This document shows positions 1 through 8,883 of a DNA stretch of 10,491 bases, piece by piece. The DNA comes from Desulfobacteraceae bacterium. Lineage in GTDB: Bacteria > Desulfobacterota > Desulfobacteria > Desulfobacterales > Desulfobacteraceae. Within the stretch, counting starts at the first letter, position 1; the number at the start of each line of letters is the position of its first letter. Where the stretch lies: assembly GCA_003354055.1 (NCBI GenBank), contig PIVQ01000196.1, positions 1-10,491 of the forward strand, written 5' to 3'. The translations under genes and the position numbers were made by a program. Below the pieces are notes generated by a model that saw only the letters and a program-made list of their open reading frames with translations, searched no databases and had not been told where the DNA came from.

Positions 1-197
1 TTGGTCTTGTAAGGCCTGGCATCGATGATCATTACATCTTCAGCCATGGGCACGGTGATTTTGGAAATGACAAAGTTGGCATCCACAATATCGTCGAACA
101 TCCAGGCTTCTTTGGCCTGGGAAGATGATACCATGAACAGGATAACCAGACCTGTAAGCAGGCTGGTAATGAATGTTTTTTTTGAGTTAAGTTTCAT
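1..197 (-). CDS. Exported rhodanese-like protein, N-terminal part only
   Basis: The frame starts at an ATG (197-195) preceded by AGGAG at 202-206 and runs off the left edge after 65 codons. Residues 1-28 form a signal peptide: a basic start (MKLNSKK), a hydrophobic stretch, and an SSSQA-K cleavage-like end, so the protein is probably periplasmic. The last visible residues contain VMIIDARPY, typical of the first strand of a rhodanese (sulfurtransferase) domain. The catalytic loop is outside the window, so a Cys cannot be confirmed. It is read from a near-consensus sigma-54 promoter about 100 nt upstream and diverges from the sigma-54 activator gene. A role in periplasmic sulfane-sulfur handling is inferred. 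A non-catalytic rhodanese fold is the alternative. Confidence 0.7.
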   Translation of the reverse strand, partial: MKLNSKKTFITSLLTGLVILFMVSSSQAKEAWMFDDIVDANFVISKITVPMAEDVMIIDARPYKT

Positions 198-283: not shown

Positions 284-299
284 AGCAAGGGTTGTGCCA
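284..299 (-). promoter_or_regulatory. Sigma-54 (-24/-12) promoter of the rhodanese-like gene
   Basis: Read on the minus strand, the sequence is TGGCAC-AACCC-TTGCT. It matches the sigma-54 consensus at every position, with the GG and GC elements correctly spaced (12 nt start to start). Transcription should begin near 273, giving a leader of about 76 nt before the ATG at 197. Such promoters need an enhancer-binding ATPase, and one is encoded immediately next door. Confidence 0.85.
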
Positions 300-370
300 A
301 TAGGGAGAAAAGGATGTCGCGGTTCTGCTATTTGACTGATATTAAAGGGTGAAATTCAACAATGGTCGTT

Positions 371-417
371 TTTTGTTGCCCATTGGATCTCCCATTGGAT
401 CTTCGATTTTGTTGCCC
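371..417. repeat. Nested short direct repeats upstream of the activator gene
   Basis: CCCATTGGATCT occurs twice in perfect tandem (379-390 and 391-402). The pair is flanked by two exact copies of TTTTGTTGCCC (371-381 and 407-417). The block lies between the sigma-54 promoter at 284-299 and the TTAACA boxes at 418-449. It may bind a second regulator or may be a slippage duplication. Confidence 0.75.
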
Positions 418-449
418 TTGTGTTAATTTTGTGTTAAGCGTTGTGTTAA
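418..449 (-). promoter_or_regulatory. Predicted enhancer (UAS): three TTAACACAA boxes
   Basis: TTGTGTTAA occurs three times on the plus strand (418-426, 429-437, 441-449), with start-to-start spacing of 11 and 12 bp, about one helical turn. Read toward the rhodanese-like gene, the boxes are TTAACACAA. The nearest lies 119 bp upstream of the -24 T at 299, a usual distance for sigma-54 activator sites. They also end just before the Shine-Dalgarno sequence of the activator gene, so binding could autoregulate it. The related boxes at 2415-2431 support a shared binder. That the binder is the protein encoded at 474 is inferred. Confidence 0.65.
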
Positions 450-473
450 CATGGTTAATAAGGAGGAGATAAA

Positions 474-1883
474 ATGGATATTGGTGACCAATGGCGGCCC
501 ATCATTGATTCTGTACAGGACGGCATCATCATTGTGGATGCGAATGGAAATTTTATCGCTGCCAACAACTCCGCCCAGCTCATGACCGGGTATTCGGAAG
601 CCCAGTTAAAGGGCCAGTCCTGCCGCATTCTAAATTGCACCGGGTGTGAGATACGGGGTAAAGGTCCGGGAAAACAATGGTGCGGTCTGTTTTCTGCCGG
701 AATGGTCAGGGATAAAAAATGTGTGATTACCTCAGCCTCCAACCGTACCATTCCCATTGTAAAATCCGCGACTGTGCTGTTGGGAAAAGACGGTGAGATC
801 ATCGGAGCCGTTGAAACTCTTAAAGATATTTCGGAAAACATTAACTATAAAAACGAACTGACCTCAATCCGGCGGATGTATCATATTGACGACGGATTCC
901 ACGGGATCGTCGGCCGGACACCGGTGATGATGAATCTCTTTGAGCACATTGAAAGCGTGGCATCTATGGATACGCCTGTGATGATTTTGGGAGAGAGCGG
1001 CACCGGAAAAGAGATGGTGGCCAAGGCCCTTCATGAGACCGGGAATCGGGCAGACAAACCCTTCATAAAGGTCAATTGTGCGGCCCTAAGTGAAAGCATC
1101 CTGGAAAGCGAGTTGTTCGGTCATGTCAAAGGCGCCTACACAGGGGCGGACACGAACCGGGTCGGGCGGTTTGAGGCTGCCCACAGTGGAACCATCTTTT
1201 TGGATGAAATCGGAGATATTCCCCTGTCAGTTCAAGTGAAGCTGCTACGGGTGTTGGAAGAGCGGATGATCCAGCGGGTGGGGGAAAACAAGTCAATCCC
1301 AATTGATGTCCGGATTATCACAGCCACCAATAAGGATCTTGACGCTATGATCGCGGATGGGAAGTTCAGAGAGGATCTTTTTTTTCGAATCAATGTCTTT
1401 CCCATGATCTGTCCGCCTTTACGGCATCGCAAGGATGATATCACCTTGATTATTCAGCATTTTATCACTATTCATGCGCAAAAAACCGGTAAGAATATTT
1501 TGGGGTTCACCCCCGAAGCCATGCGCTTCATGGTTGCCTATCCCTGGCCGGGCAATATCCGTGAGTTGAGAAACACGGTGGAATATGCCTTTGTTTTGGC
1601 CAAGGGCAAAGGCATACGGCCGGAGCATCTGCCCGAGAAAATCCATGGGGCTGCCTTATATACACCGGTATCCGAGGACGGGTTACCGGTGCCGCCGGCG
1701 TCTGAGTCGTCCCCTGCCGGACCGACCACGGTGACGGTCAGTAAAAATCAACGTCAGGAGCTGATCAGTGCCTTGCACAAGGCTCAGGGAAACCAGACCC
1801 GGGCCGCTGACATCCTGGGGGTATCCAGAATCACCGTGTGGAAACGGATGAAGAAGTACAATGTAAAGGTCAAAAGCGTTTAA
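474..1883 (+). CDS. Sigma-54-dependent transcriptional activator with Cys-rich PAS domain
   Basis: This 469-residue protein starts at an ATG preceded by AGGAGGAG. An N-terminal PAS domain (about 6-120) carries an unusual cysteine set (C50, C55, C58, C70, C83) that could bind a metal or Fe-S cluster or form disulfides. The central AAA+ domain (about 143-375) has Walker A GESGTGKE (173-180), the sigma-54-contact loop GAYTGA (220-225, Tyr for the usual Phe), Walker B IFLDEIGD (241-248), an arginine-finger region FREDLFFR and WPGNIREL (358-365). A Fis-type helix-turn-helix lies at about 425-462. There is no receiver domain, so activity is probably controlled through the PAS domain. The gene lies between two sigma-54 promoters with matching upstream boxes, which makes it the prime candidate to activate both. 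The stop codon overlaps the converging DsrE-like gene by four bases. Confidence 0.95.
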   Translation: MDIGDQWRPIIDSVQDGIIIVDANGNFIAANNSAQLMTGYSEAQLKGQSCRILNCTGCEIRGKGPGKQWCGLFSAGMVRDKKCVITSASNRTIPIVKSATVLLGKDGEIIGAVETLKDISENINYKNELTSIRRMYHIDDGFHGIVGRTPVMMNLFEHIESVASMDTPVMILGESGTGKEMVAKALHETGNRADKPFIKVNCAALSESILESELFGHVKGAYTGADTNRVGRFEAAHSGTIFLDEIGDIPLSVQVKLLRVLEERMIQRVGENKSIPIDVRIITATNKDLDAMIADGKFREDLFFRINVFPMICPPLRHRKDDITLIIQHFITIHAQKTGKNILGFTPEAMRFMVAYPWPGNIRELRNTVEYAFVLAKGKGIRPEHLPEKIHGAALYTPVSEDGLPVPPASESSPAGPTTVTVSKNQRQELISALHKAQGNQTRAADILGVSRITVWKRMKKYNVKVKSV

Positions 1884-2239
1884 AGGCTTATACAGGCGGC
1901 ATCACAGGCAATATCAATGAGTTCCGCTGCCGTGGCCATCCTGCATGATTCTGCCAGATTTTCCTCTTCAATAAACCTGGATTTTGCACAGGGAGTGCAG
2001 ACAAGAATCGGCACATCATGGGCCTGGAGATGGGCCAGGGAATCATCGGCGGAATCTCCGGTGGCTGCCTTAAGGTTTTCCGCTGCACCCTGGCGGGCCA
2101 GGTAAACGCCGTCATCCAAAAGAAAAACGGTCACATTCTTGCCTTTTTTCTGGGCGACCGCTGCCAGAAAAAGTCCCCGGGTTGCCCGGTTGGGATTGTC
2201 GGTTCCGCAGGAGATGGTGATGAGTACATTGTCAGTCAT
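1880..2239 (-). CDS. DsrE-family small sulfur-relay-like protein
   Basis: This 119-residue soluble protein starts at the ATG at 2239, chosen over an upstream in-frame ATG at 2305 because AAGGAG sits correctly in front of it. The fold signature is DsrE/DsrF-like: an opening strand VLITISCGTDNPNRATRG, a second strand VTVFLLDDGVYLA, then PILVCTPCAKSR. DsrE-family proteins take part in cytoplasmic sulfur transfer or have unknown roles. Cysteines are C11, C81, C84 (a CxxC), C99, C112 and C116. There is no dsrF or dsrH partner next to it, so this is not the canonical DsrEFH complex. It converges on the activator gene, with the two stop codons overlapping at 1880-1883 and no terminator between them. 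A sulfur-carrier role is inferred. Confidence 0.8.
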   Translation of the reverse strand: MTDNVLITISCGTDNPNRATRGLFLAAVAQKKGKNVTVFLLDDGVYLARQGAAENLKAATGDSADDSLAHLQAHDVPILVCTPCAKSRFIEEENLAESCRMATAAELIDIACDAACISL

Positions 2240-2330
2240 GGTTGCTCCTTGATTTTCGGTTGGCTGTGTAAAACAGCAGTTAGAGAGAATGCTTCTTCTA
2301 TTCATAGGACATGTTTAAACGATTTGTAAA

Positions 2331-2343
2331 GCCACACTGTGGC
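2331..2343. promoter_or_regulatory. Perfect 13-bp palindrome upstream of the DsrE-like gene
   Basis: GCCACA-C-TGTGGC is a perfect inverted repeat about 92 bp upstream of the DsrE-like start codon. It may be an operator for that gene. No sigma-54 promoter was found for the DsrE-like gene on the minus strand, and no factor can be named. Confidence 0.3.
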
Positions 2344-2414
2344 AGTCTCTTTTTTCTGTGCCGGTTTTATGATACCGTGGGCCTTTGTCGAAACCTCCGG
2401 TGGGAAAGCTTAGG

Positions 2415-2431
2415 TTAACAATTACTTAACA
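2415..2431 (+). promoter_or_regulatory. Predicted enhancer (UAS): two TTAACA boxes
   Basis: TTAACA occurs at 2415-2420 and 2426-2431, 11 bp apart. The near edge lies 121 bp upstream of the -24 T at 2552, in the same orientation relative to the promoter as the boxes at 418-449. The flanks also agree: here GTTAACA-N4-CTTAACA, and on the minus strand at 432-450 GTTAACA-N5-CTTAACA. This supports one activator serving both promoters. Confidence 0.6.
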
Positions 2432-2551
2432 GTCTTCCCGGCTGGAAAACTTTAGAGGTGTAAACCCCGAAATTAAAAATAAGATTTAACCACTGAATTG
2501 CCAAAGGATTTGACCTGTGACGCTTCCATTGGCGTTAGACAATTTAGATTC

Positions 2552-2567
2552 TGGCATTATCTTTGCT
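2552..2567 (+). promoter_or_regulatory. Sigma-54 (-24/-12) promoter of the thioredoxin/Fe-S/cytochrome operon
   Basis: The sequence is TGGCAT-TATCT-TTGCT, with the GG and GC dinucleotides at the required spacing. It differs from consensus only at the last base of the -24 block. Transcription should start near 2578, about 79 nt before the ATG at 2657. This geometry nearly matches that of the rhodanese-like gene (105 against 102 nt from the -24 T to the ATG). Confidence 0.85.
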
Positions 2568-2656: not shown

Positions 2657-3223
2657 ATGAAAAAAGAGAACGTACTGGTTTTAGCGCTTATAATAATTGC
2701 CTTGGGCGGTAGCTATGTGTTTAATGCCATGAATAACGGCAGGCCGTCCGGAAGCTCTGTGCAAATACCCTCTGCCTCAGCAGAGGTCCGGCAGAAGAAC
2801 CCGGTAGCATCCTTAGGCGAAGTGGAAACTCCCGGGATATCCTCAGGTATTGAATGGAAAGACTATACCCCGGGTATGGCCCTGGCCAGAAAGGAAAATA
2901 AGAGTATCTTTCTCTACTTTCATGCACCTTGGTGTTCCTATTGCACGAAGCTGAAAAAAACCACATTCAAGGACGAACAGGTGCTTGCCTATTTAGAGGA
3001 GAATTTTATCAGCATCCAGGTGAACACGGATGAGAATAAGCCCCTTGCAGACAAGTGGCGGGTCAAGGGCCTACCCACCTTGTGGTTCCTTGAATCAACC
3101 GGGGATAAAATTAACAGTATGCCCGGGTATATTGAGGCCGGCCGACTGCTTCAGATCCTTAAATATATTCACACCCAAAGCTATACCACCATGGAGTTCC
3201 ACGAATTTGTAAAACAAGGATAA
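2657..3223 (+). CDS. Membrane-anchored thioredoxin-like protein, periplasmic CxxC
   Basis: I chose the ATG at 2657 (188 residues) because AAAGGA lies six bases before it; an in-frame GTG at 2639 has no comparable site. Residues 5-23 form an uncleaved signal anchor or signal peptide, followed by a low-complexity linker to about residue 62. The thioredoxin-fold domain (about 66-172) has FHAPWCSYCTKLK with active-site C93-S-Y-C96 and the cis-proline motif GLPT at 138-141. It resembles the thioredoxin_7/DUF255-like group, which reduces disulfides or persulfides rather than acting as a general thioredoxin. It is the first gene of the sigma-54 operon, 30 nt ahead of the Fe-S protein gene. Substrates are unknown; a partnership with the exported rhodanese-like protein or the Fe-S protein is inferred. 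Confidence 0.85.
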   Translation: MKKENVLVLALIIIALGGSYVFNAMNNGRPSGSSVQIPSASAEVRQKNPVASLGEVETPGISSGIEWKDYTPGMALARKENKSIFLYFHAPWCSYCTKLKKTTFKDEQVLAYLEENFISIQVNTDENKPLADKWRVKGLPTLWFLESTGDKINSMPGYIEAGRLLQILKYIHTQSYTTMEFHEFVKQG

Positions 3224-3253: not shown

Positions 3254-4231
3254 ATGAAAGGCAGAAAAAATATGACCCGAAAATTGTCAAGACGCGCCTT
3301 TTTAAAAGGATCCCTCACTGCAGCAGGCAGTGTTGCTGCAAGTGCCCCATTGGCCTTGGCCACCAATGCAGTTACCAAGGAGTCAACAGAACCTCTTGTG
3401 ACCGTCATTGATATTGGCAAGTGTATTGGGTGTCAAGAGTGCGTCTATGCATGCCGAGAGTCCAATGCAGAAAAATTCCCCCGGCCCCGGAAGCCTTTTC
3501 CCAAGATGGTTCCCGATCGGGTTCCGGTTCAGGACTGGTCTGAAAAACAAGATGTTACAGATCGGCTCACCCCCTATAACTGGTTGTATATCCAGAAGGC
3601 CACTGCCGTCATTGACGGTGAGGAAACAGAAGTGACCATTCCGAGAAGATGTATGCATTGCGACAATCCTCCCTGTGTAAAACTCTGCCCCTGGGGGGCT
3701 GCCAAACAGGAGGCCAATGGATTATCTCGGATTGATTCCGATATCTGTCTGGGCGGATCCAAATGTAAAAAGGTTTGCCCCTGGGATGTTCCCCAGCGCC
3801 AGACCGGTGTGGGCCTTTACCTGGACATACTGCCCAGCCTGGCCGGAAACGGGGTGATGTACAAATGCGACCGGTGTTTTCAAAGAATCGAAAAAGGGCA
3901 ATCCCCTGCCTGTATTGAGGCCTGTCCTGAAGATGCCCAGATCATGGGGCCTAGGTCCGAGATGGTAAAACAGGCCAGGGCAATGGCCAAGGAGACAAAC
4001 GGTTATCTTTACGGGCTGGATGAAAATGGAGGCACCAATACCATCTATGTATCGCAGGTTCCCTTTGACCAATTGTCCATGAAGACAGGTAAAGGTCAGC
4101 CCCACATGGATCCGGTTAAAGACCGGATGGCCCAGGGAAGCAACCTGGCCCGTGCCATGGTCATTGCGCCCCTGGCAGGAGCCGCCGCGGCATTTGGTAA
4201 ATTTTACAAAGGGGTAAAGGAGGATAGCTGA
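3254..4231 (+). CDS. Tat-exported Fe-S electron-transfer protein, DmsB/HybA-like
   Basis: This 325-residue protein has a start supported by AAAGGGA five bases upstream; ATG 3272 is a weaker alternative. A twin-arginine signal SRRAFLK (12-18) plus a hydrophobic stretch to about 37 implies folded export. Four Cys groups follow the DmsB/NarH/HybA pattern: C57-60-63-67, C133-136-141-145, C165-171-175 and C205-208-220-224. Group III has Gly168 where the second Cys is expected, so one cluster may be [3Fe-4S], as in NarH where Trp takes that place. A short hydrophobic C-terminus (about 300-316) may touch or cross the membrane. The gene overlaps the next by one base (TGATG). Such subunits normally pass electrons between a molybdopterin enzyme or hydrogenase and a membrane cytochrome, but no catalytic subunit is present here. 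Confidence 0.92.
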   Translation: MKGRKNMTRKLSRRAFLKGSLTAAGSVAASAPLALATNAVTKESTEPLVTVIDIGKCIGCQECVYACRESNAEKFPRPRKPFPKMVPDRVPVQDWSEKQDVTDRLTPYNWLYIQKATAVIDGEETEVTIPRRCMHCDNPPCVKLCPWGAAKQEANGLSRIDSDICLGGSKCKKVCPWDVPQRQTGVGLYLDILPSLAGNGVMYKCDRCFQRIEKGQSPACIEACPEDAQIMGPRSEMVKQARAMAKETNGYLYGLDENGGTNTIYVSQVPFDQLSMKTGKGQPHMDPVKDRMAQGSNLARAMVIAPLAGAAAAFGKFYKGVKEDS

Positions 4232-4671
4232 TGAAGACTAAAATCAAAGGGAAACTTTACGGAATCACCCTCTTTCTCATTACCCTGTCAGGGTTTGCCC
4301 AGATGCCTATTTTCAAACGGTATTATATTGCCGATATTCCGGGGTTGGGCTGGCTGGCCGAGTTCTATGTTACGCATAGTATCCACTATATGATGGCATC
4401 TGTGCTTCTGGCCCTGGGCGGATATGCGGTGGTTGACTTTTTTTTCAACAACAGGGGACTTTCTGCACTGACGGTGTCGGGCAAGGTCAAAGCCTTGCTT
4501 TTGACGGGGCTAATTGTTTCCGGGGGATTGATGGTGGTGAGAAATTTGCCGGGGATTTATTTTTCCCATGTGTCCATTTATCTGATGAATCTTCTTCACT
4601 TAGGGTTTTGTATGGCTCTGATAGCAGTTTCCGGTTTTACCCTGGTGGCCCGGAAATCCTGGATTAGATAG
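4231..4671 (+). CDS. Four-helix membrane protein, putative cytochrome b subunit
   Basis: This 146-residue protein is translationally coupled to the Fe-S protein (stop/start overlap TGATG, with AAAGGAGG just upstream). Four hydrophobic segments are visible at about 8-26, 50-70, 87-103 and 115-139. Histidines H49, H52, H113 and H123 lie in or near the second and fourth helices and could ligate b-type heme, as in the gamma subunits of formate dehydrogenase or hydrogenase. Pairing with the Tat-exported polyferredoxin suggests electron exchange between that protein and the quinone pool. The family is not recognised with certainty, and heme binding is inferred from the histidines alone. It is the last gene of the operon, followed by a terminator. 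Confidence 0.75.
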   Translation: MKTKIKGKLYGITLFLITLSGFAQMPIFKRYYIADIPGLGWLAEFYVTHSIHYMMASVLLALGGYAVVDFFFNNRGLSALTVSGKVKALLLTGLIVSGGLMVVRNLPGIYFSHVSIYLMNLLHLGFCMALIAVSGFTLVARKSWIR

Positions 4672-5364: not shown

Positions 5365-5397
5365 ATGTCAGTCCATGCAGGGGGTAAACTTAGGTGA
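5365..5397 (+). CDS. Possible 10-codon leader peptide before the SAM hydrolase gene
   Basis: An ATG with a good Shine-Dalgarno sequence (AGAGG at 5353-5357) opens a short frame, MSVHAGGKLR, ending in TGA. That stop overlaps the GTG start of the SAM hydrolase gene as GTGA. The arrangement would suit translational coupling, but such a short frame may arise by chance. Confidence 0.3.
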   Translation: MSVHAGGKLR

Positions 5398-6203
5398 GCA
5401 AATATAATTTACCAATTGTTTTGATCACGGATTTCGGGCACACGGACCCCTTTGTGGGAATTATGAAAGGGGTGATCCACGGGATTGCCCCCCATGCCGG
5501 AATCATTGACCTGTCCCACGGGATTCGGCCCCAGGATGTCTTTCACGGGGCCTTTGTATTGTACCGGTCCTACGCCTATTTTCCCAAGGGCAGTATTTTC
5601 TGTGCCGTGGTGGACCCGGGGGTGGGAACGGACCGGCGACCGGTGGCTGTTAAAACCCGTGACTATGTTTTTGTAGGGCCGGATAACGGACTTATCTGGG
5701 CGGCAGCCAATGCAAACGGCATTGAAGCCGCTGTCTGCCTGGAAAATCCGGAATATTTCTTAGATGAGATATCTCACACCTTTCATGGAAGGGACATCTT
5801 TGCCCCGGTAGCGGCTCATCTTTCCCTTAAAACGTCTTTGGCTGAGATGGGCCGGACTATTCTTGATTTGACCGAATTTAAGTTTCCCGAGCCTGAGCCC
5901 CGGGGGGAAACACTGATAGTCACTGTATTGGATCAGGATATTTACGGCAACCTGACACTCAACATTTGCCTACGGGATTTTTTGAGTTTTACCGGGCAGG
6001 GGTTTTCCCTTGAATTGAACGATGTAAGGATTACCCGGTTCCATACGACTTACGGACAGGCTGAGGAAAATGTTCCTTTTGTTGTCGCAGGATCTCACGG
6101 TCTCATGGAGATCGCTGTGAAGAACAACAGTGCCGCAGAAAAAACCTGTGCCTCTGTTCTGGACCGGTTTACACTTATACCGGGAAGATCAGAACTTACT
6201 TGA
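5394..6203 (+). CDS. S-adenosylmethionine hydrolase (adenosine-forming), DUF62 family
   Basis: This 269-residue cytoplasmic enzyme begins at a GTG preceded by GGGGG. Members of this family (SAM hydroxide adenosyltransferases, related to fluorinases and chlorinases) split SAM to adenosine and methionine using water. The N-terminal domain shows LITDFG (11-15) and VVDPGVGTDRR. The family Asp-Arg-His set is present as D74, R81 and H131 (in FHGRDIF), followed by a smaller C-terminal barrel (about 172-269). The 21-23-residue insertion loop typical of halogenating relatives is not evident, which favours the hydrolase. It lies 90 nt upstream of a nucleoside phosphorylase gene and is probably co-transcribed with it, so the adenosine could be salvaged directly. 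Confidence 0.9.
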   Translation: MSKYNLPIVLITDFGHTDPFVGIMKGVIHGIAPHAGIIDLSHGIRPQDVFHGAFVLYRSYAYFPKGSIFCAVVDPGVGTDRRPVAVKTRDYVFVGPDNGLIWAAANANGIEAAVCLENPEYFLDEISHTFHGRDIFAPVAAHLSLKTSLAEMGRTILDLTEFKFPEPEPRGETLIVTVLDQDIYGNLTLNICLRDFLSFTGQGFSLELNDVRITRFHTTYGQAEENVPFVVAGSHGLMEIAVKNNSAAEKTCASVLDRFTLIPGRSELT

Positions 6204-6217
6204 TTACCTGTTCTGAT
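6188..6217 (+). other. Intercistronic hairpin at the SAM hydrolase stop codon
   Basis: ATCAGAAC (6188-6195) and GTTCTGAT (6210-6217) form an 8-bp perfect stem with the TGA stop in the loop. There is no T-run after it, so it is more likely an mRNA stability or attenuation element than a full terminator. Confidence 0.4.
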
Positions 6218-6293
6218 TATGGTAGCGCAATGGAGCGAATGATTTAAATATCAACTGACACCAGAGCACTTATTCTTTTTAAAGGAGAACACA

Positions 6294-7043
6294 ATGATAC
6301 GGGTCGGTATAATCGGCGGATCCGGTTTGGATGATCCTGATATCCTTAAGGATGTCAGGGTAATTGAAGCAGATACACCATATGGCAAGCCCTCGTCCAG
6401 GATTAAATCGGGAAAAATAGGTGATACAGACGTCTTGATTATGGCCAGGCACGGCCGGAAGCATCAATTCAGTCCCACTCAGGTAAACAACAGGGCCAAT
6501 ATCTATGCCCTTAAAATTGCCGGAGCTACTCATATCCTGGCAACAACCGCCTGCGGCAGTCTCAGGCATGATATCGACCGGGGTCATTTTGTGATACTGG
6601 ACCAGTTTATTGATTTTACAAGGTTCCGTAAAACCACCTTTGCCGATTCCTTTGAGAGCGGTGCCGTACACACGGCCATGGCACATCCCTTTGACCAAAA
6701 TCTGCGGAGTAATCTTTATGAGTCGGCAAAGGGACTGGATTTGAACGTTCATAAGTCCGGTTGCGTGGTGACCATTGAAGGTCCCAGGTTTTCAACCGTG
6801 GCGGAATCGAAAATGTTTCGTCTCTGGGGTGCGGATGTGATCAATATGTCCATAGCACCAGAGGCAATGCTGGCCAATGAGGCCGGTATCCCATATGCTG
6901 CCGTGGCCATGTCCACGGATTATGACTGCTGGAAAGAGGATGAAGCCCCGGTGACCTGGGATGAAATCCTGGCTGTATTTAATAAAAACGCAGACAATGT
7001 CAAGAATCTGCTTGTCAGAACCATTGAGCATTTAGCTCTTTAG
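6294..7043 (+). CDS. mtnP: S-methyl-5'-thioadenosine / adenosine phosphorylase (PNP family)
   Basis: This 249-residue enzyme starts at an ATG behind AAAGGAG. It follows the MTAP fold closely: GGSGLD (8-13), phosphate-site RHGRKH (52-57) and VNNRANI, TTACGSL (84-90), VTIEGPRFST (159-168) and NMS (184-186). TDYDCWK (208-214), with its two aspartates, favours 6-aminopurines (MTA, adenosine, 5'-deoxyadenosine) over inosine or guanosine. The reaction is nucleoside plus phosphate to adenine plus a (methylthio)ribose 1-phosphate. It sits between SAM hydrolase and adenine phosphoribosyltransferase genes, so adenosine made by the hydrolase is a likely substrate. True specificity within the MTAP/MTIP/PNP group cannot be fixed from sequence alone. 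Confidence 0.92.
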   Translation: MIRVGIIGGSGLDDPDILKDVRVIEADTPYGKPSSRIKSGKIGDTDVLIMARHGRKHQFSPTQVNNRANIYALKIAGATHILATTACGSLRHDIDRGHFVILDQFIDFTRFRKTTFADSFESGAVHTAMAHPFDQNLRSNLYESAKGLDLNVHKSGCVVTIEGPRFSTVAESKMFRLWGADVINMSIAPEAMLANEAGIPYAAVAMSTDYDCWKEDEAPVTWDEILAVFNKNADNVKNLLVRTIEHLAL

Positions 7044-7089
7044 GTACCTTTAATTTTTTTTTATATAAACAGGAGTGCAACAACAATTT

Positions 7090-7611
7090 ATGGAGTTAAA
7101 AGAAACCATCAGAAGCATCCCCGGCTGGCCTATTGAAGGCGTTATTTTTAGAGATTTGACCACCTTGATGCAGGATCCCGATGCATTCAGGGAATCCTGT
7201 GACATCCTCATTGACAGATATAAGGACAAGGAGCTGGATAAGATTGTTGGTATTGATGCCAGGGGATTCGTTTTTGGTGCGGTTCTGGCCTATCAACTGG
7301 GGATCGGATTTGTTCCGGTACGGAAAAAAGGAAAGTTGCCCCATACCACCATCCAGGAAAGCTACAGCCTGGAATATGGTGAGGATACCCTTGAAATTCA
7401 TGAAGATGCCATAGAAAAGGGTGAAAAAGTGGTGATTGTGGATGATTTAATTGCTACAGGCGGCACTGTCGGTGCCACTGTCAAACTGGTGAACAAGCTT
7501 GGGGTTGACCTGATTGAATGTGCCTTTATTGTGGAGTTGCCTGACCTAAACGGCCGGGCGCAAATTCCGGGATGTAATGTTTTTTCCATTACGGAGTTTG
7601 ACGGCGACTAA
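7090..7611 (+). CDS. apt: Adenine phosphoribosyltransferase
   Basis: This 173-residue cytoplasmic enzyme converts adenine and PRPP to AMP and pyrophosphate. The sequence follows bacterial APRT along its whole length: GVIFRDLTTL near the start, GIDARGFVFG (54-63), FVPVRKKGKLP (74-84), SLEYGEDTLEIHEDAI and the PRPP loop VVIVDDLIATGGT (114-126). The start is uncertain. A GTG at 7075 in the same frame overlaps the AGGAG motif and so cannot use it. The ATG at 7090 lies 14 bases after AGGAG, a long spacing, but gives the usual family N-terminus. It is 46 nt downstream of the phosphorylase gene and consumes that enzyme's product. Confidence 0.94.
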   Translation: MELKETIRSIPGWPIEGVIFRDLTTLMQDPDAFRESCDILIDRYKDKELDKIVGIDARGFVFGAVLAYQLGIGFVPVRKKGKLPHTTIQESYSLEYGEDTLEIHEDAIEKGEKVVIVDDLIATGGTVGATVKLVNKLGVDLIECAFIVELPDLNGRAQIPGCNVFSITEFDGD

Positions 7612-7627
7612 GGAGAATTTACGCTGC

Positions 7628-7670
7628 GCCGGGTAGCCAGCTCTACAAATGACACCCGCTGGCCCCCGGC
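7628..7670 (+). other. GC-rich hairpin between the apt and lipoprotein genes
   Basis: GCCGGGTAGCCAGC (7628-7641) can pair with GCTGGCCCCCGGC (7658-7670) as two 6-bp blocks (GCCGGG and GCCAGC) around a small TA/G internal mismatch. No T-run follows, so it is not a standard intrinsic terminator. It may stabilise the upstream mRNA or be a dispersed palindromic repeat. Confidence 0.45.
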
Positions 7671-7694
7671 TTGCCTCATCTCATCGGAGAAATT

Positions 7695-8165
7695 ATGAAA
7701 TCAAATATCTGTAAAAACGGCCGGAAAACGGCTGTTTCAATTATAATTATTTGCCTGCTGATAATAACCGGATGTATTGGGGGGGGCTGGGGCCGTCTTA
7801 AACACAATCAGGACCTGATGGTTAATTATAAGGACAAAAAACTTTCTGAAACCCTGAACTATTATTATTGCGGCAGGTCCTCAATCCCCTATGCCGTCAT
7901 CGGCATTGACAAGGCTTATACCTTTGAGGGCGGGACCTGGTTCAAAATCGAATCCCCAGAAGACCTTTACTATAAAATCGGAAATCTCAGTGATCTTGAA
8001 CCCAACCTTACCATAATGTCCGGTAAAGATATTTTAGGGCCCGACGGCCGGGTGATAGGTCTTTGGTTTTCTTGCTACAACAGCACAGGGGTTAGGGTGG
8101 ATGAGGAAAATGGTATTGTAGAGGTGTTCAATCCCTACAAACCTAGTTCCAAATTTTATTATTAG
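7695..8165 (+). CDS. Predicted small lipoprotein, family not recognised
   Basis: The start is the ATG at 7695, with GGAG five bases before it. An earlier in-frame ATG at 7671 would spoil the signal peptide. The 156-residue product has a basic N-terminus, a hydrophobic core (13-24) and a lipobox IITGC with Cys27, so it should be lipidated and lie in the periplasm or at the outer membrane. Glycines follow the Cys, then a compact soluble domain with YYYCGRSSIPYAVIGID (57-72) and FKIESPEDLYYKIG (83-96). I do not know the family. It may belong to the purine operon by position, but the hairpin between them argues for separate control. It converges on the cyclic-nucleotide regulator gene with a single base between the stop codons. 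Confidence 0.75.
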   Translation: MKSNICKNGRKTAVSIIIICLLIITGCIGGGWGRLKHNQDLMVNYKDKKLSETLNYYYCGRSSIPYAVIGIDKAYTFEGGTWFKIESPEDLYYKIGNLSDLEPNLTIMSGKDILGPDGRVIGLWFSCYNSTGVRVDEENGIVEVFNPYKPSSKFYY

Positions 8166-8166
8166 C

Positions 8167-8883
8167 CTATACCGGTTTAACCCCTTCGATCATTGCAAAG
8201 ATTTTCAGGGCTTTTTCAAGAAATCTGGTGCCGCCCAGAAGCGTGATGGTCCGCTGGCCGTTTCGGTCTTTGTTCCGGTCCTGTGCAAGTTCTATCAGGT
8301 TTAAGTCTTCCATGGTTGTAAGGTCCTTGACGATCTCTTCTTCAGATTTTGCCAGGGCCTTGGCCAGGGCGGCAAGGGTGTCGTCATAGTACAGATCTGT
8401 TTTTCCGTGGCATCTGAGAAGATCAAGGATCCAGGCGATCCGTTCAAGGGTGGCAGGTCTTCCGCATTCCTGGGTGGAAAATTCATTAAGGCGGTGGGCA
8501 ATGGCCACCAGGCAGGCGGATATCACCTTAGGGCTTTTGTTCAGGTATTGCTCAAACACCTCTTTGGGTATACGGATGATCTGTGAATCCTCCAGAGCGG
8601 TGGCTGTAGCTGAGCGGGTATGGTTGCCCGTAAGCAGAGCAACTTCGCCAAATACCGCCTGTTCTCCCAGTACGGTCAATACGGATTTCTTACCGTCTTT
8701 GCGAATGGAAATTTCTACCTGCCCGGATTTGACCACATAGGCGGCATACCCCTTGGCACCTGTGGAAAAAATAGTTTCGTCCTTTTTGTACTGCTGGATC
8801 TGAAATCCGTCCGGTTTGGATGCGGGTTTGGGGTCGGGTTTATTTTTAATATATTCGGCAAAGGGTGTGAATTGGGTGTTCAT
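8167..8883 (-). CDS. CRP/FNR-type regulator with cyclic-nucleotide-binding domain
   Basis: This 238-residue protein starts at the ATG at 8883, with GAGG six bases upstream. After a Pro/Lys-rich N-terminal tail it has a cyclic-nucleotide-binding beta-barrel (about 27-115). The phosphate-binding cassette FGEVALL (78-84) is followed by R90-S91-A92, the pattern of true cAMP/cGMP binders. A long helix (about 117-137) links to a C-terminal winged helix-like region (about 145-217) with LAKALAKSEEEIVKDLTTM as the likely helix-turn-helix. This part is less typical of CRP, so DNA binding is likely rather than certain. No FNR-like N-terminal Cys cluster is present, so it is not an Fe-S oxygen sensor. 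It diverges from the small unknown gene at 9235. Confidence 0.85.
   Translation of the reverse strand: MNTQFTPFAEYIKNKPDPKPASKPDGFQIQQYKKDETIFSTGAKGYAAYVVKSGQVEISIRKDGKKSVLTVLGEQAVFGEVALLTGNHTRSATATALEDSQIIRIPKEVFEQYLNKSPKVISACLVAIAHRLNEFSTQECGRPATLERIAWILDLLRCHGKTDLYYDDTLAALAKALAKSEEEIVKDLTTMEDLNLIELAQDRNKDRNGQRTITLLGGTRFLEKALKIFAMIEGVKPV

What the first reader, a model, noticed from the sequence alone, without database searches (positions are those of the whole stretch)
284..2567. Two sigma-54 promoters with matching geometry and shared TTAACA enhancer boxes around one activator gene
The minus-strand promoter at 284-299 and the plus-strand promoter at 2552-2567 both have canonical -24/-12 spacing. 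TTAACA boxes repeat at 11-12 bp intervals (418-449 and 2415-2431) in the same orientation relative to each promoter. Their near edges are 119 and 121 bp from the -24 T, and the ATGs are 102 and 105 nt downstream of it. This coincidence, with the activator gene lying between, suggests a complete local regulon and gives a testable recognition motif, roughly GTTAACA-N4/5-CTTAACA.
Basis: partly seen in the sequence, partly recalled or inferred. Interest (0 to 1): 0.75.

Follow-up and report, generated by a model that had tools for sequence, protein, structure and literature searches.

The report
Conserved sigma-54 switch for sulfur-respiration genes
In a family of marine sulfate-reducing bacteria, one regulator gene sits between two promoters that carry the same repeated DNA boxes, and the boxes have been kept at fixed distances in dozens of relatives, so this looks like a real, uncharacterised switch for a set of electron-transfer and sulfur-handling genes.

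Summary
Both -24/-12 promoters match the consensus perfectly and the TTAACA boxes lie where described. Relatives turn the pattern into strong evidence. At the left promoter all 29 loci examined (window plus 28 relatives) keep TTAACA boxes 110-150 bp upstream: 71 boxes, shuffled mean 0.96, maximum 5. At the right promoter 16 of 31 keep an exact box. In 86 genomes of the family, array and activator gene occur together, nearly always side by side. FDX loci without the activator: 0 of 44 have boxes plus promoter. The left operon, cut by the window, encodes in relatives a three-domain rhodanese, a small protein, an octaheme 'tetrathionate reductase family' cytochrome and a cytochrome b; the right encodes thioredoxin-like, 4Fe-4S and membrane proteins. 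Two corrections. The equal box-promoter distances are coincidence: medians are 114 (left) and 125.5 (right), and the window's left spacer has an exact 12-bp tandem duplication. The regulon is not always local: small-protein/porin operons and a rhodanese gene elsewhere carry the boxes in some relatives. New regulon of a known kind; binding by the activator and the signal are inferred.

The parts
3..197 (-). Start of a periplasmic rhodanese gene (RHO), cut by the window edge; first gene of the left operon
   Evidence: 65-aa open frame, no family match on its own; full-length relative L001 5927-7018 has three rhodanese stretches
284..299 (-). Left sigma-54 promoter TGGCACAACCCTTGCT, reading toward RHO
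   Evidence: Zero mismatches; TGGCAC-N5-TTGCT in 26 of 29 loci, the other 3 differ by one base
379..402 (.). Exact 12-bp tandem duplication CCCATTGGATCT in the left spacer, which lengthens the box-promoter distance to 127
   Evidence: median of the 29 loci is 114
410..416 (-). Degenerate last unit GGCAACA of the left array
   Evidence: C/A/A of CAAYA kept in 28/29/29 of 29
421..449 (-). Left enhancer array: TTAACA at 444-449, 432-437 and 421-426, units 11-12 bp apart
   Evidence: TTAACA present 110-150 bp upstream in 29 of 29 loci
453..458 (-). Further upstream unit TTAACC of the left array
   Evidence: Aligned unit, variable
474..1883 (+). Activator gene (ACT): PAS, AAA+ sigma-54 activation domain, Fis-type helix-turn-helix; no receiver domain match
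1880..2239 (-). DsrE-family gene between the activator and the right promoter; present in part of the relatives
2331..2343 (+). Terminator-like stem followed by a T-run, downstream of the activator; similar element in 6 of the 80 loci, including two without the DsrE gene
   Evidence: consensus match only (3 such sites found in the region, 2.6 expected)
2415..2431 (+). Right enhancer boxes GTTAACA-N4-CTTAACA
   Evidence: exact box at 110-150 bp in 16 of 31 loci, relaxed pair in 17 of 31
2552..2567 (+). Right sigma-54 promoter TGGCATTATCTTTGCT
   Evidence: Zero mismatches; a strong promoter match in 31 of 31 loci with activator and TRX
2657..3223 (+). Thioredoxin-like protein (TRX), first gene of the right operon
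3254..4231 (+). 4Fe-4S protein with a twin-arginine-like start (by eye) (FDX), HmcB/HybA-like
   Evidence: the 25 NCBIfam hits shown are all below their cut-offs
4231..4671 (+). Small membrane protein (CYTB, my label by eye: possibly a b-type cytochrome); no family match
   Evidence: conserved next to FDX

Best explanation
A one-component sigma-54 activator (PAS-AAA+-Fis) controls two flanking operons from two enhancers made of TTAACA units set 11-12 bp apart, about one helical turn. In response to a signal, probably sensed through the cysteine-rich PAS domain, it oligomerises on the array and contacts sigma-54 RNA polymerase at a -24/-12 promoter about 110-140 bp downstream through a DNA loop, opening the promoter by ATP hydrolysis. 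The left promoter drives rhodanese / small protein / octaheme cytochrome / cytochrome b; the right drives thioredoxin-like / 4Fe-4S / membrane protein. Together they look like a periplasm-to-membrane electron-transfer module for a sulfur (or selenium) oxyanion or sulfane sulfur. Because the left array lies next to the activator's own start codon, it may also limit the activator's own transcription. Shown here: promoters, boxes, their conservation at fixed distances, linkage to the activator gene and operon content in relatives. Inferred: binding by this activator, looping, the signal, the substrate and autoregulation.
For: Promoters and boxes exact. Left side: 71 TTAACA in 29 of 29 loci at 110-150 bp, shuffled mean 0.96, max 5; neighbouring bins at chance. 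By ungapped comparison of the last 180 bases, 28 of the 29 remain at a 70% identity cut-off, so this is not recent copying (ungapped comparison understates identity where there are indels). Right side: 23 boxes in 16 of 31, shuffled mean 0.77, max 4. Box-to-promoter distance kept (27 of 29 within 123-128 for the reference box) while box-to-activator-ATG distance varies from 27 to 186: in L013 the array is 186 bp from the ATG but still 123 bp from the promoter. Full pattern in 22 activator-bearing genomes: 17 of 22 hit, 27 rows at 24 distinct sites, of which 22 are at activator loci and 2 at small-protein/porin operons with boxes at 112 and 123 bp, the same distances as on the left; read-backwards control 0 in all 22 (places compared, genes). 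Family-wide: array profile at E<=1e-4 in 41 of 86 genomes, activator at >=67% identity in 41 of 86, both in 39; the two array-only genomes carry the activator in split or truncated pieces. Gap between array and activator 13-46 bp in 39 of 40, 166 in one. FDX loci without the activator: 10 of 44 testable have a promoter-like match, 0 have boxes with it. More distant activators (56-65% identity) still lie beside TTAACA or TGTTAA elements and sigma-54 promoters in L168, L164, L229, L230 and L231.
Against: No binding or transcription data. On the right side 15 of 31 loci lack an exact box at 110-150 bp, and 14 of 31 lack the relaxed pair; in five Desulfotignum loci (L028, L030, L031, L040, L045) the stretch where boxes would lie is inside the activator gene and holds none. 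For L165, a 55% ortholog, the scan found no strong sigma-54 promoter. The L228 boxes lie further upstream (175-194) and those of L230/L231 closer (48-81), and profile R1 does not find an array beside the activator in the five genomes with 63-66% activators. Of the four further genomes with R1 only at E 0.001-0.01, G187 has it beside the activator but G182, G190 and G007 show no regulon genes at the place. GTTAAC is palindromic, so the right-hand pairs can also be read as an inverted repeat. The activator carries GAYTGA instead of GAFTGA.
Confidence: 0.85

Rival explanations
1. A different regulator (another PAS-type activator or a repressor such as Rex) binds the TTAACA boxes, and the neighbouring activator acts elsewhere.
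For: These genomes give many candidate activator genes (10-131 first-look candidates per genome, not all scored), some 47-56% identical to this one. In one genome (G188) the activator reads in two frames while the boxes remain. TTAACA resembles half of the Rex site as I recall it.
Against: The array lies next to this activator in 40 of 41 genomes with an activator match at >=67% identity, and the 41st (G023) has a weak array match there. Three of the five paralogs at 53-56% identity were fetched; they stand beside porin genes and show no such boxes with a strong promoter (L225-L227). The 11-12 bp direct spacing differs from the Rex inverted repeat (recalled, not tested).
Confidence: 0.09
2. 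The left array is only the activator's own operator (autoregulation) and not an enhancer for the rhodanese operon.
For: The array ends 13-46 bp from the activator match in 39 of 40 genomes. A sigma-70-like match for the activator overlaps a box at 446-475 (3 such matches found in the region, 3.4 expected).
Against: Spacing to the sigma-54 promoter is kept more tightly (sd 3.1) than spacing to the activator ATG (sd 27.7, driven mainly by L013 and L015). The same boxes stand before the right promoter, small-protein/porin operons and a rhodanese gene, away from the activator start.
Confidence: 0.05
3. The functional unit is an inverted repeat bound by a dimer (TGTTAAC-N5-GTTAACA, i.e. TGT/ACA half-sites) rather than a direct-repeat array.
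For: Known Desulfovibrio motifs include TGT/ACA half-sites 9, 11 or 12 bp apart (PMC4641369 section 6). Several right-side sites read like TGTTAACAAATTGTTAACA. TGTTAA occurs 24 times in 21 of 29 left regions at 110-150 bp.
Against: On the left, TTAACA (71) outnumbers TGTTAA (24), and the last units are directional: ATTAACA and GGCAAYA, mostly without TG before them.
Confidence: 0.35
4. Chance clustering in AT-rich DNA.
For: TTAACA alone is not over-represented in the window.
Confidence: 0.01

Closest known systems
DVU3142 / ohcBAC regulon of Desulfovibrio vulgaris (Kazakov et al. 2015, PMC4641369)
   Same: One-component sigma-54 activator encoded divergently from an operon with an octaheme cytochrome; sigma-54 promoter and upstream sites predicted; the complex has an iron-sulfur protein and a b-type cytochrome.
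   Different: Here the genes are split into two operons on both sides of the activator, and rhodanese, thioredoxin-like, DsrE and (in relatives) porin genes are added. The DVU3142 sequence and its motif could not be obtained, so orthology and motif identity are untested.
extHIJKL(MNOPQS) cluster of Geobacter sulfurreducens (PMC5877670)
   Same: Order rhodanese, porin, small protein, multihaem cytochrome, with a b-type cytochrome further on, is matched by L228 and L229. ExtKL is described there as a proposed cytochrome with selenocysteine, and a second octaheme copy in four of seven genomes here has an in-frame TGA.
   Different: The Geobacter cluster is reported to be regulated directly by Fur and has extra cytochromes and a Rieske protein. 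Its porin matters for selenite/tellurite reduction; no such function is shown here.
NifA/NtrC-type one-component activators (PrdR, NifA, ZraR)
   Same: AAA+ and Fis-type domains, with a PAS sensor; ZraR is the closest solved structure by sequence, NifA and PrdR the closest NCBIfam models.
   Different: All 25 NCBIfam scores shown (of 32) are below the curated cut-offs; an unnamed subfamily.
Octaheme tetrathionate reductase family (TIGR04315)
   Same: Octaheme protein of the left operon in L001 scores 503.5 against a cut-off of 375.
   Different: Substrate not tested; outside the window.

Membership tests
One-component sigma-54 enhancer-binding activators | AAA+ sigma-54 activation domain | tested here: met
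   PF00158 E 4.6e-71, residues 145-311
One-component sigma-54 enhancer-binding activators | GAFTGA loop that contacts sigma-54 | tested here: inconclusive
   GAYTGA in the window protein and in 16 of the 20 proteins (window included); GAFTGA in the more distant L164, L159, L162 and L153
One-component sigma-54 enhancer-binding activators | Fis-type DNA-binding domain | tested here: met
   PF02954 E 1.4e-10, residues 427-462
One-component sigma-54 enhancer-binding activators | Sensor domain other than a receiver | tested here: met
   PAS matches, no response-regulator match
One-component sigma-54 enhancer-binding activators | Binds upstream sites and activates | not testable with these tools
   Needs footprinting and reporters
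Sigma-54 promoter | TGGCAC/T-N5-TTGCW with GG and GC 10 bp apart | tested here: met
   Both exact; conserved in 29 and 31 loci with at most small departures
DVU3142/Ohc regulon | Activator orthologous to DVU3142 | not tested
   No Desulfovibrio sequence was reached; the 40% relative in L153 beside an octaheme/FeS/cyt b operon is the nearest arrangement seen
DVU3142/Ohc regulon | Single ohcBAC operon (FeS, octaheme, cyt b) divergent from the activator | tested here: not met
   FeS and membrane protein are on the other side of the activator
ext cluster of Geobacter | Rhodanese-porin-small protein-multihaem cytochrome order | tested here: met
   Met in relatives L228 and L229; in L001, L006, L014 and L032 no porin gene lies in the operon
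ext cluster of Geobacter | Sequence orthology to ExtH-ExtL | not tested
   Geobacter proteins were not compared

The most novel reading that the evidence does not exclude
The enhancer is a true direct-repeat array: four or five TTAACA-like units one helical turn apart that load the activator in one orientation on one face of the DNA, unlike the usual dimer palindrome. The PAS domain with four invariant cysteines (C50, C58, C70, C83) senses sulfane sulfur, redox state or a chalcogen oxyanion, making this a dedicated switch for an octaheme-cytochrome respiratory module across Desulfobacteraceae.
Probability: 0.3. Interest if true: 0.6.

Novelty: new member of a known kind. Interest (0 to 1): 0.47.

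Why it matters
It gives a well-defined, mostly single-locus regulon with a sharp recognition element to an uncharacterised octaheme-cytochrome and rhodanese module of marine sulfate reducers. Finding the signal of this one activator would tell what the module is for. Natural spacing variants (a 12-bp duplication in the window, a 150-bp shift in L013, repeat expansion in L015) make it a good system for testing how enhancer spacing works on sigma-54 promoters.

Tried and rejected
Chance: rejected. Matching geometry as a functional rule: rejected. Larger regulon: the array profile in 23 genomes gave 22 strong rows (E<1e-5) in 21 genomes, all at activator loci (places compared). Of the 29 weaker rows 19 were looked at: those at right promoters (L195, L198, L200), the small-protein/porin operon (L197) and the rhodanese (L191) have a strong promoter at a fitting distance; L194 has one 14 bp away, judged unrelated; the other 13 have none. 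L190 is a toxin-antitoxin-like locus by eye. IHF site in the spacer: 2 of 29, shuffled mean 0.55, max 5, not convincing. Rex as binder was judged from recall only.

Rows left out: one search kept the 80 best of 340 loci. Activators under 60% identity were left out. L008, L009 and L011 lack the left region. L036 has no TRX match and is absent from the right-side count. 5 of 49 loci were too short upstream; L003 there shows only 31 bp above its promoter. In one search, 28 of the 29 arrays were used (L047 left out). One search used stricter filters. In one search the L047 reference box (134) is probably mis-anchored, since its exact box is at 123. The output was cut in the middle.
Full report
What is in the window. 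The window carries, from left to right, the start of a rhodanese gene on the minus strand (3-197, cut), a PAS-AAA+-Fis activator (474-1883), a DsrE-family gene on the minus strand (1880-2239), and a plus-strand row of thioredoxin-like (2657-3223), 4Fe-4S (3254-4231) and small membrane protein (4231-4671) genes. The relatives that bear names are Desulfobacter, Desulfobacula, Desulfotignum and other Desulfobacteraceae or Desulfobacterales, mostly metagenome-assembled. No whole genome is held for the window itself.

The observation. Both promoters match TGGCAY-N5-TTGCW with no mismatch and are the only such matches in the window. The boxes are at 421-426, 432-437 and 444-449 on the minus strand and 2415-2420 and 2426-2431 on the plus strand. 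The number of boxes by itself is ordinary for this sequence, so the test is conservation.

Conservation at the left promoter. From 80 loci found with the 4Fe-4S protein (80 of 340), 28 have the activator with enough DNA in front of it; with the window this makes 29. All 29 have a strong -24/-12 promoter, 26 of them TGGCAC-N5-TTGCT. All 29 have at least one exact TTAACA 110-150 bp upstream of the -24 T: 71 boxes, where dinucleotide shuffles give a mean of 0.96 and at most 5; the bins nearer and farther are at chance level. At a 70% cut-off (ungapped, last 180 bases) 28 of the 29 upstream regions remain, so the sequences around the boxes have diverged. Aligned, the array reads roughly NTTAACA-N5-NTTAACA-N4-ATTAACA-N4-GGCAAYA, with the two central TTAA cores and the CAA of the last unit nearly invariant. 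A relaxed pair of units is present in 28 of 29, shuffled mean 0.12, max 2; the strict pair in 21 of 29, shuffled max 0.

Conservation at the right promoter. 31 loci (30 relatives and the window) have a strong promoter in front of the thioredoxin-like gene. 16 of 31 have an exact box at 110-150 bp (23 boxes; shuffled mean 0.77, max 4), 17 of 31 have a relaxed pair (shuffled mean 0.10, max 2) and 7 of 31 the strict pair (shuffled max 1). In five Desulfotignum loci (L028, L030, L031, L040, L045) the intergenic region is short and no box is seen. This side is therefore well supported but not universal.

Linkage to the activator. A sequence-only profile of the left array (R1) scanned against 86 genomes of the family is found at E<=1e-4 in 41 (45 at E<=0.01, of which G182, G190 and G007 show no regulon genes at the place). 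The activator at 67% identity or more is found in 41; 39 have both. The two array-only genomes, G188 and G204, carry activator pieces beside the array. The two activator-only genomes have weaker array matches next to the gene (G187 at 1.6e-3; G023 at 0.48). Array and activator are 13-46 bp apart in 39 of 40 genomes and 166 in one. FDX loci without the activator show boxes with a promoter in 0 of 44 testable cases, 10 of which have a promoter-like match. In 22 activator-bearing genomes (about 109 Mb) the complete pattern of two boxes and a promoter hits 17 of 22 and gives 27 rows at 24 distinct sites: 18 left-type (two of them in G010), 4 right-type and 2 at small-protein/porin operons; the read-backwards control gives none. 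At those two operons the boxes start 123 and 112 bp from the promoter, as on the left. In G022 the porin reads only in pieces in more than one frame. With the boxes reversed, one of 22 genomes (G023) is hit, in front of another rhodanese gene.

The boxes belong to the promoters. The reference box of the left array stays 123-128 bp from the promoter in 27 of 29 loci (sd 3.1), while its distance to the activator ATG runs from 27 to 186 (sd 27.7, mainly L013 and L015). In L013 extra DNA separates array and activator but the array-promoter distance is unchanged, and in L015 the array has extra units.

The equal distances are a coincidence. The nearest exact box starts a median of 114 bp (left) and 125.5 bp (right) from the -24 T. 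The window's 127 and 126 agree because its left spacer contains an exact 12-bp tandem duplication, CCCATTGGATCT at 379-390 and 391-402. The promoter-to-ATG distances also vary (right side 58-137, median 82).

What is controlled. In L001 the left operon is rhodanese with three domains, a 125-aa protein, an octaheme cytochrome of TIGR04315 (503.5 bits, cut-off 375) and a cytochrome b561. L006, L014 and L032 have the same order. In more distant relatives the activator (55-65% identity) stands beside a small protein, octaheme cytochrome and cytochrome b, with a DUF3373-type porin in L164, L165, L168, L228, L229 and L230 (not in the fetched piece L231), and with the rhodanese in L228, L229 and L231. 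In L164 and L165 further genes look like sulfur-transfer and transport genes (by eye, not scanned). In two Desulfotignum genomes a small-protein/porin pair carries its own boxes and promoter elsewhere. In G226, a further genome of the family, boxes lie 157-164 bp before a promoter ahead of such a pair. The picture is a periplasm-to-membrane electron-transfer module with sulfur-transfer proteins.

Mechanism. By established knowledge of this family, the activator binds the boxes as an oligomer and drives open-complex formation by sigma-54 polymerase through a loop. Here only the DNA sites and the protein domains are shown. Four cysteines of the PAS domain are invariant in the 20 proteins aligned, down to 40% identity (C50, C58, C70, C83), which suggests a metal- or sulfur-based sensor; this is inference. 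The left units are mostly direct repeats (TTAACA 71, TGTTAA 24 in the array region), but GTTAAC is a palindrome and the right-hand sites can be read either way.

Against the literature. The nearest published case is the DVU3142-ohcBAC regulon predicted in Desulfovibrio (PMC4641369; sections 6, 10 and 13 and passages read). The gene order of the left operon in L228 and L229 resembles extHIJKL of Geobacter (PMC5877670, passages read), which is reported to be under Fur. A 2025 survey of Desulfobacteraceae networks mentions sigma-54 activators only in general in the two passages seen (PMC11887813). In the listings no title or abstract start points to this regulon; the papers listed there were otherwise not opened, and the library lacks most subscription journals.

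Verdict. Ordinary in kind, new in identity, and strongly supported by comparison: a one-activator, mostly two-operon sigma-54 regulon with a clear element.

Noticed in passing
window 2320-2350: Stem with T-run (GCCACACTGTGGC...CTCTTTTTT) downstream of the activator; similar in L001, L002, L006, L010, L020 and L029, of which L002 and L010 show no DsrE gene. Probably the activator's terminator.
   Followed up: partly
L001 5539-5916, L168 6905-7252, L164 6901-7230: The small protein of the octaheme operon has a CRSCH haem motif and cytochrome c matches in L164, but no CXXCH in L001 or L168 (by eye, on what the calls printed) and no family match there: apparently a cytochrome that lost its haem site.
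   Followed up: partly
G002, G004, G005, G007: A second octaheme copy over the TIGR04315 cut-off with one in-frame TGA, possibly selenocysteine, as proposed for the Geobacter ExtKL protein.
   Followed up: no
L225, L226, L227: A paralogous activator (52-54% identity) sits divergently beside a porin and small-protein pair with no TTAACA array or strong promoter; it may define a second specificity.
   Followed up: partly
L223 (G188) 6983-8348: The activator reads in two frames in this assembly while both promoters and boxes remain; sequencing error or recent damage.
   Followed up: partly
L117 (G022) 5738-7344: The porin-like gene behind the boxed promoter reads in pieces in more than one frame and is only 31-38% identical to the L168 porin, while its counterpart in G020 is an open 576-aa gene.
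   Followed up: no
L153 10774-12713: A 40% relative of the activator beside an octaheme/FeS/cytochrome operon, with TGTTAACATAGGCAAC above a weak promoter: perhaps a diverged form of the same element.
   Followed up: no
window 5394-7611: SAM hydroxide adenosyltransferase followed by two further genes that I read as a phosphorylase and a phosphoribosyltransferase (names by eye, not scanned); the neighbourhood is conserved next to the right operon in many relatives.
   Followed up: no
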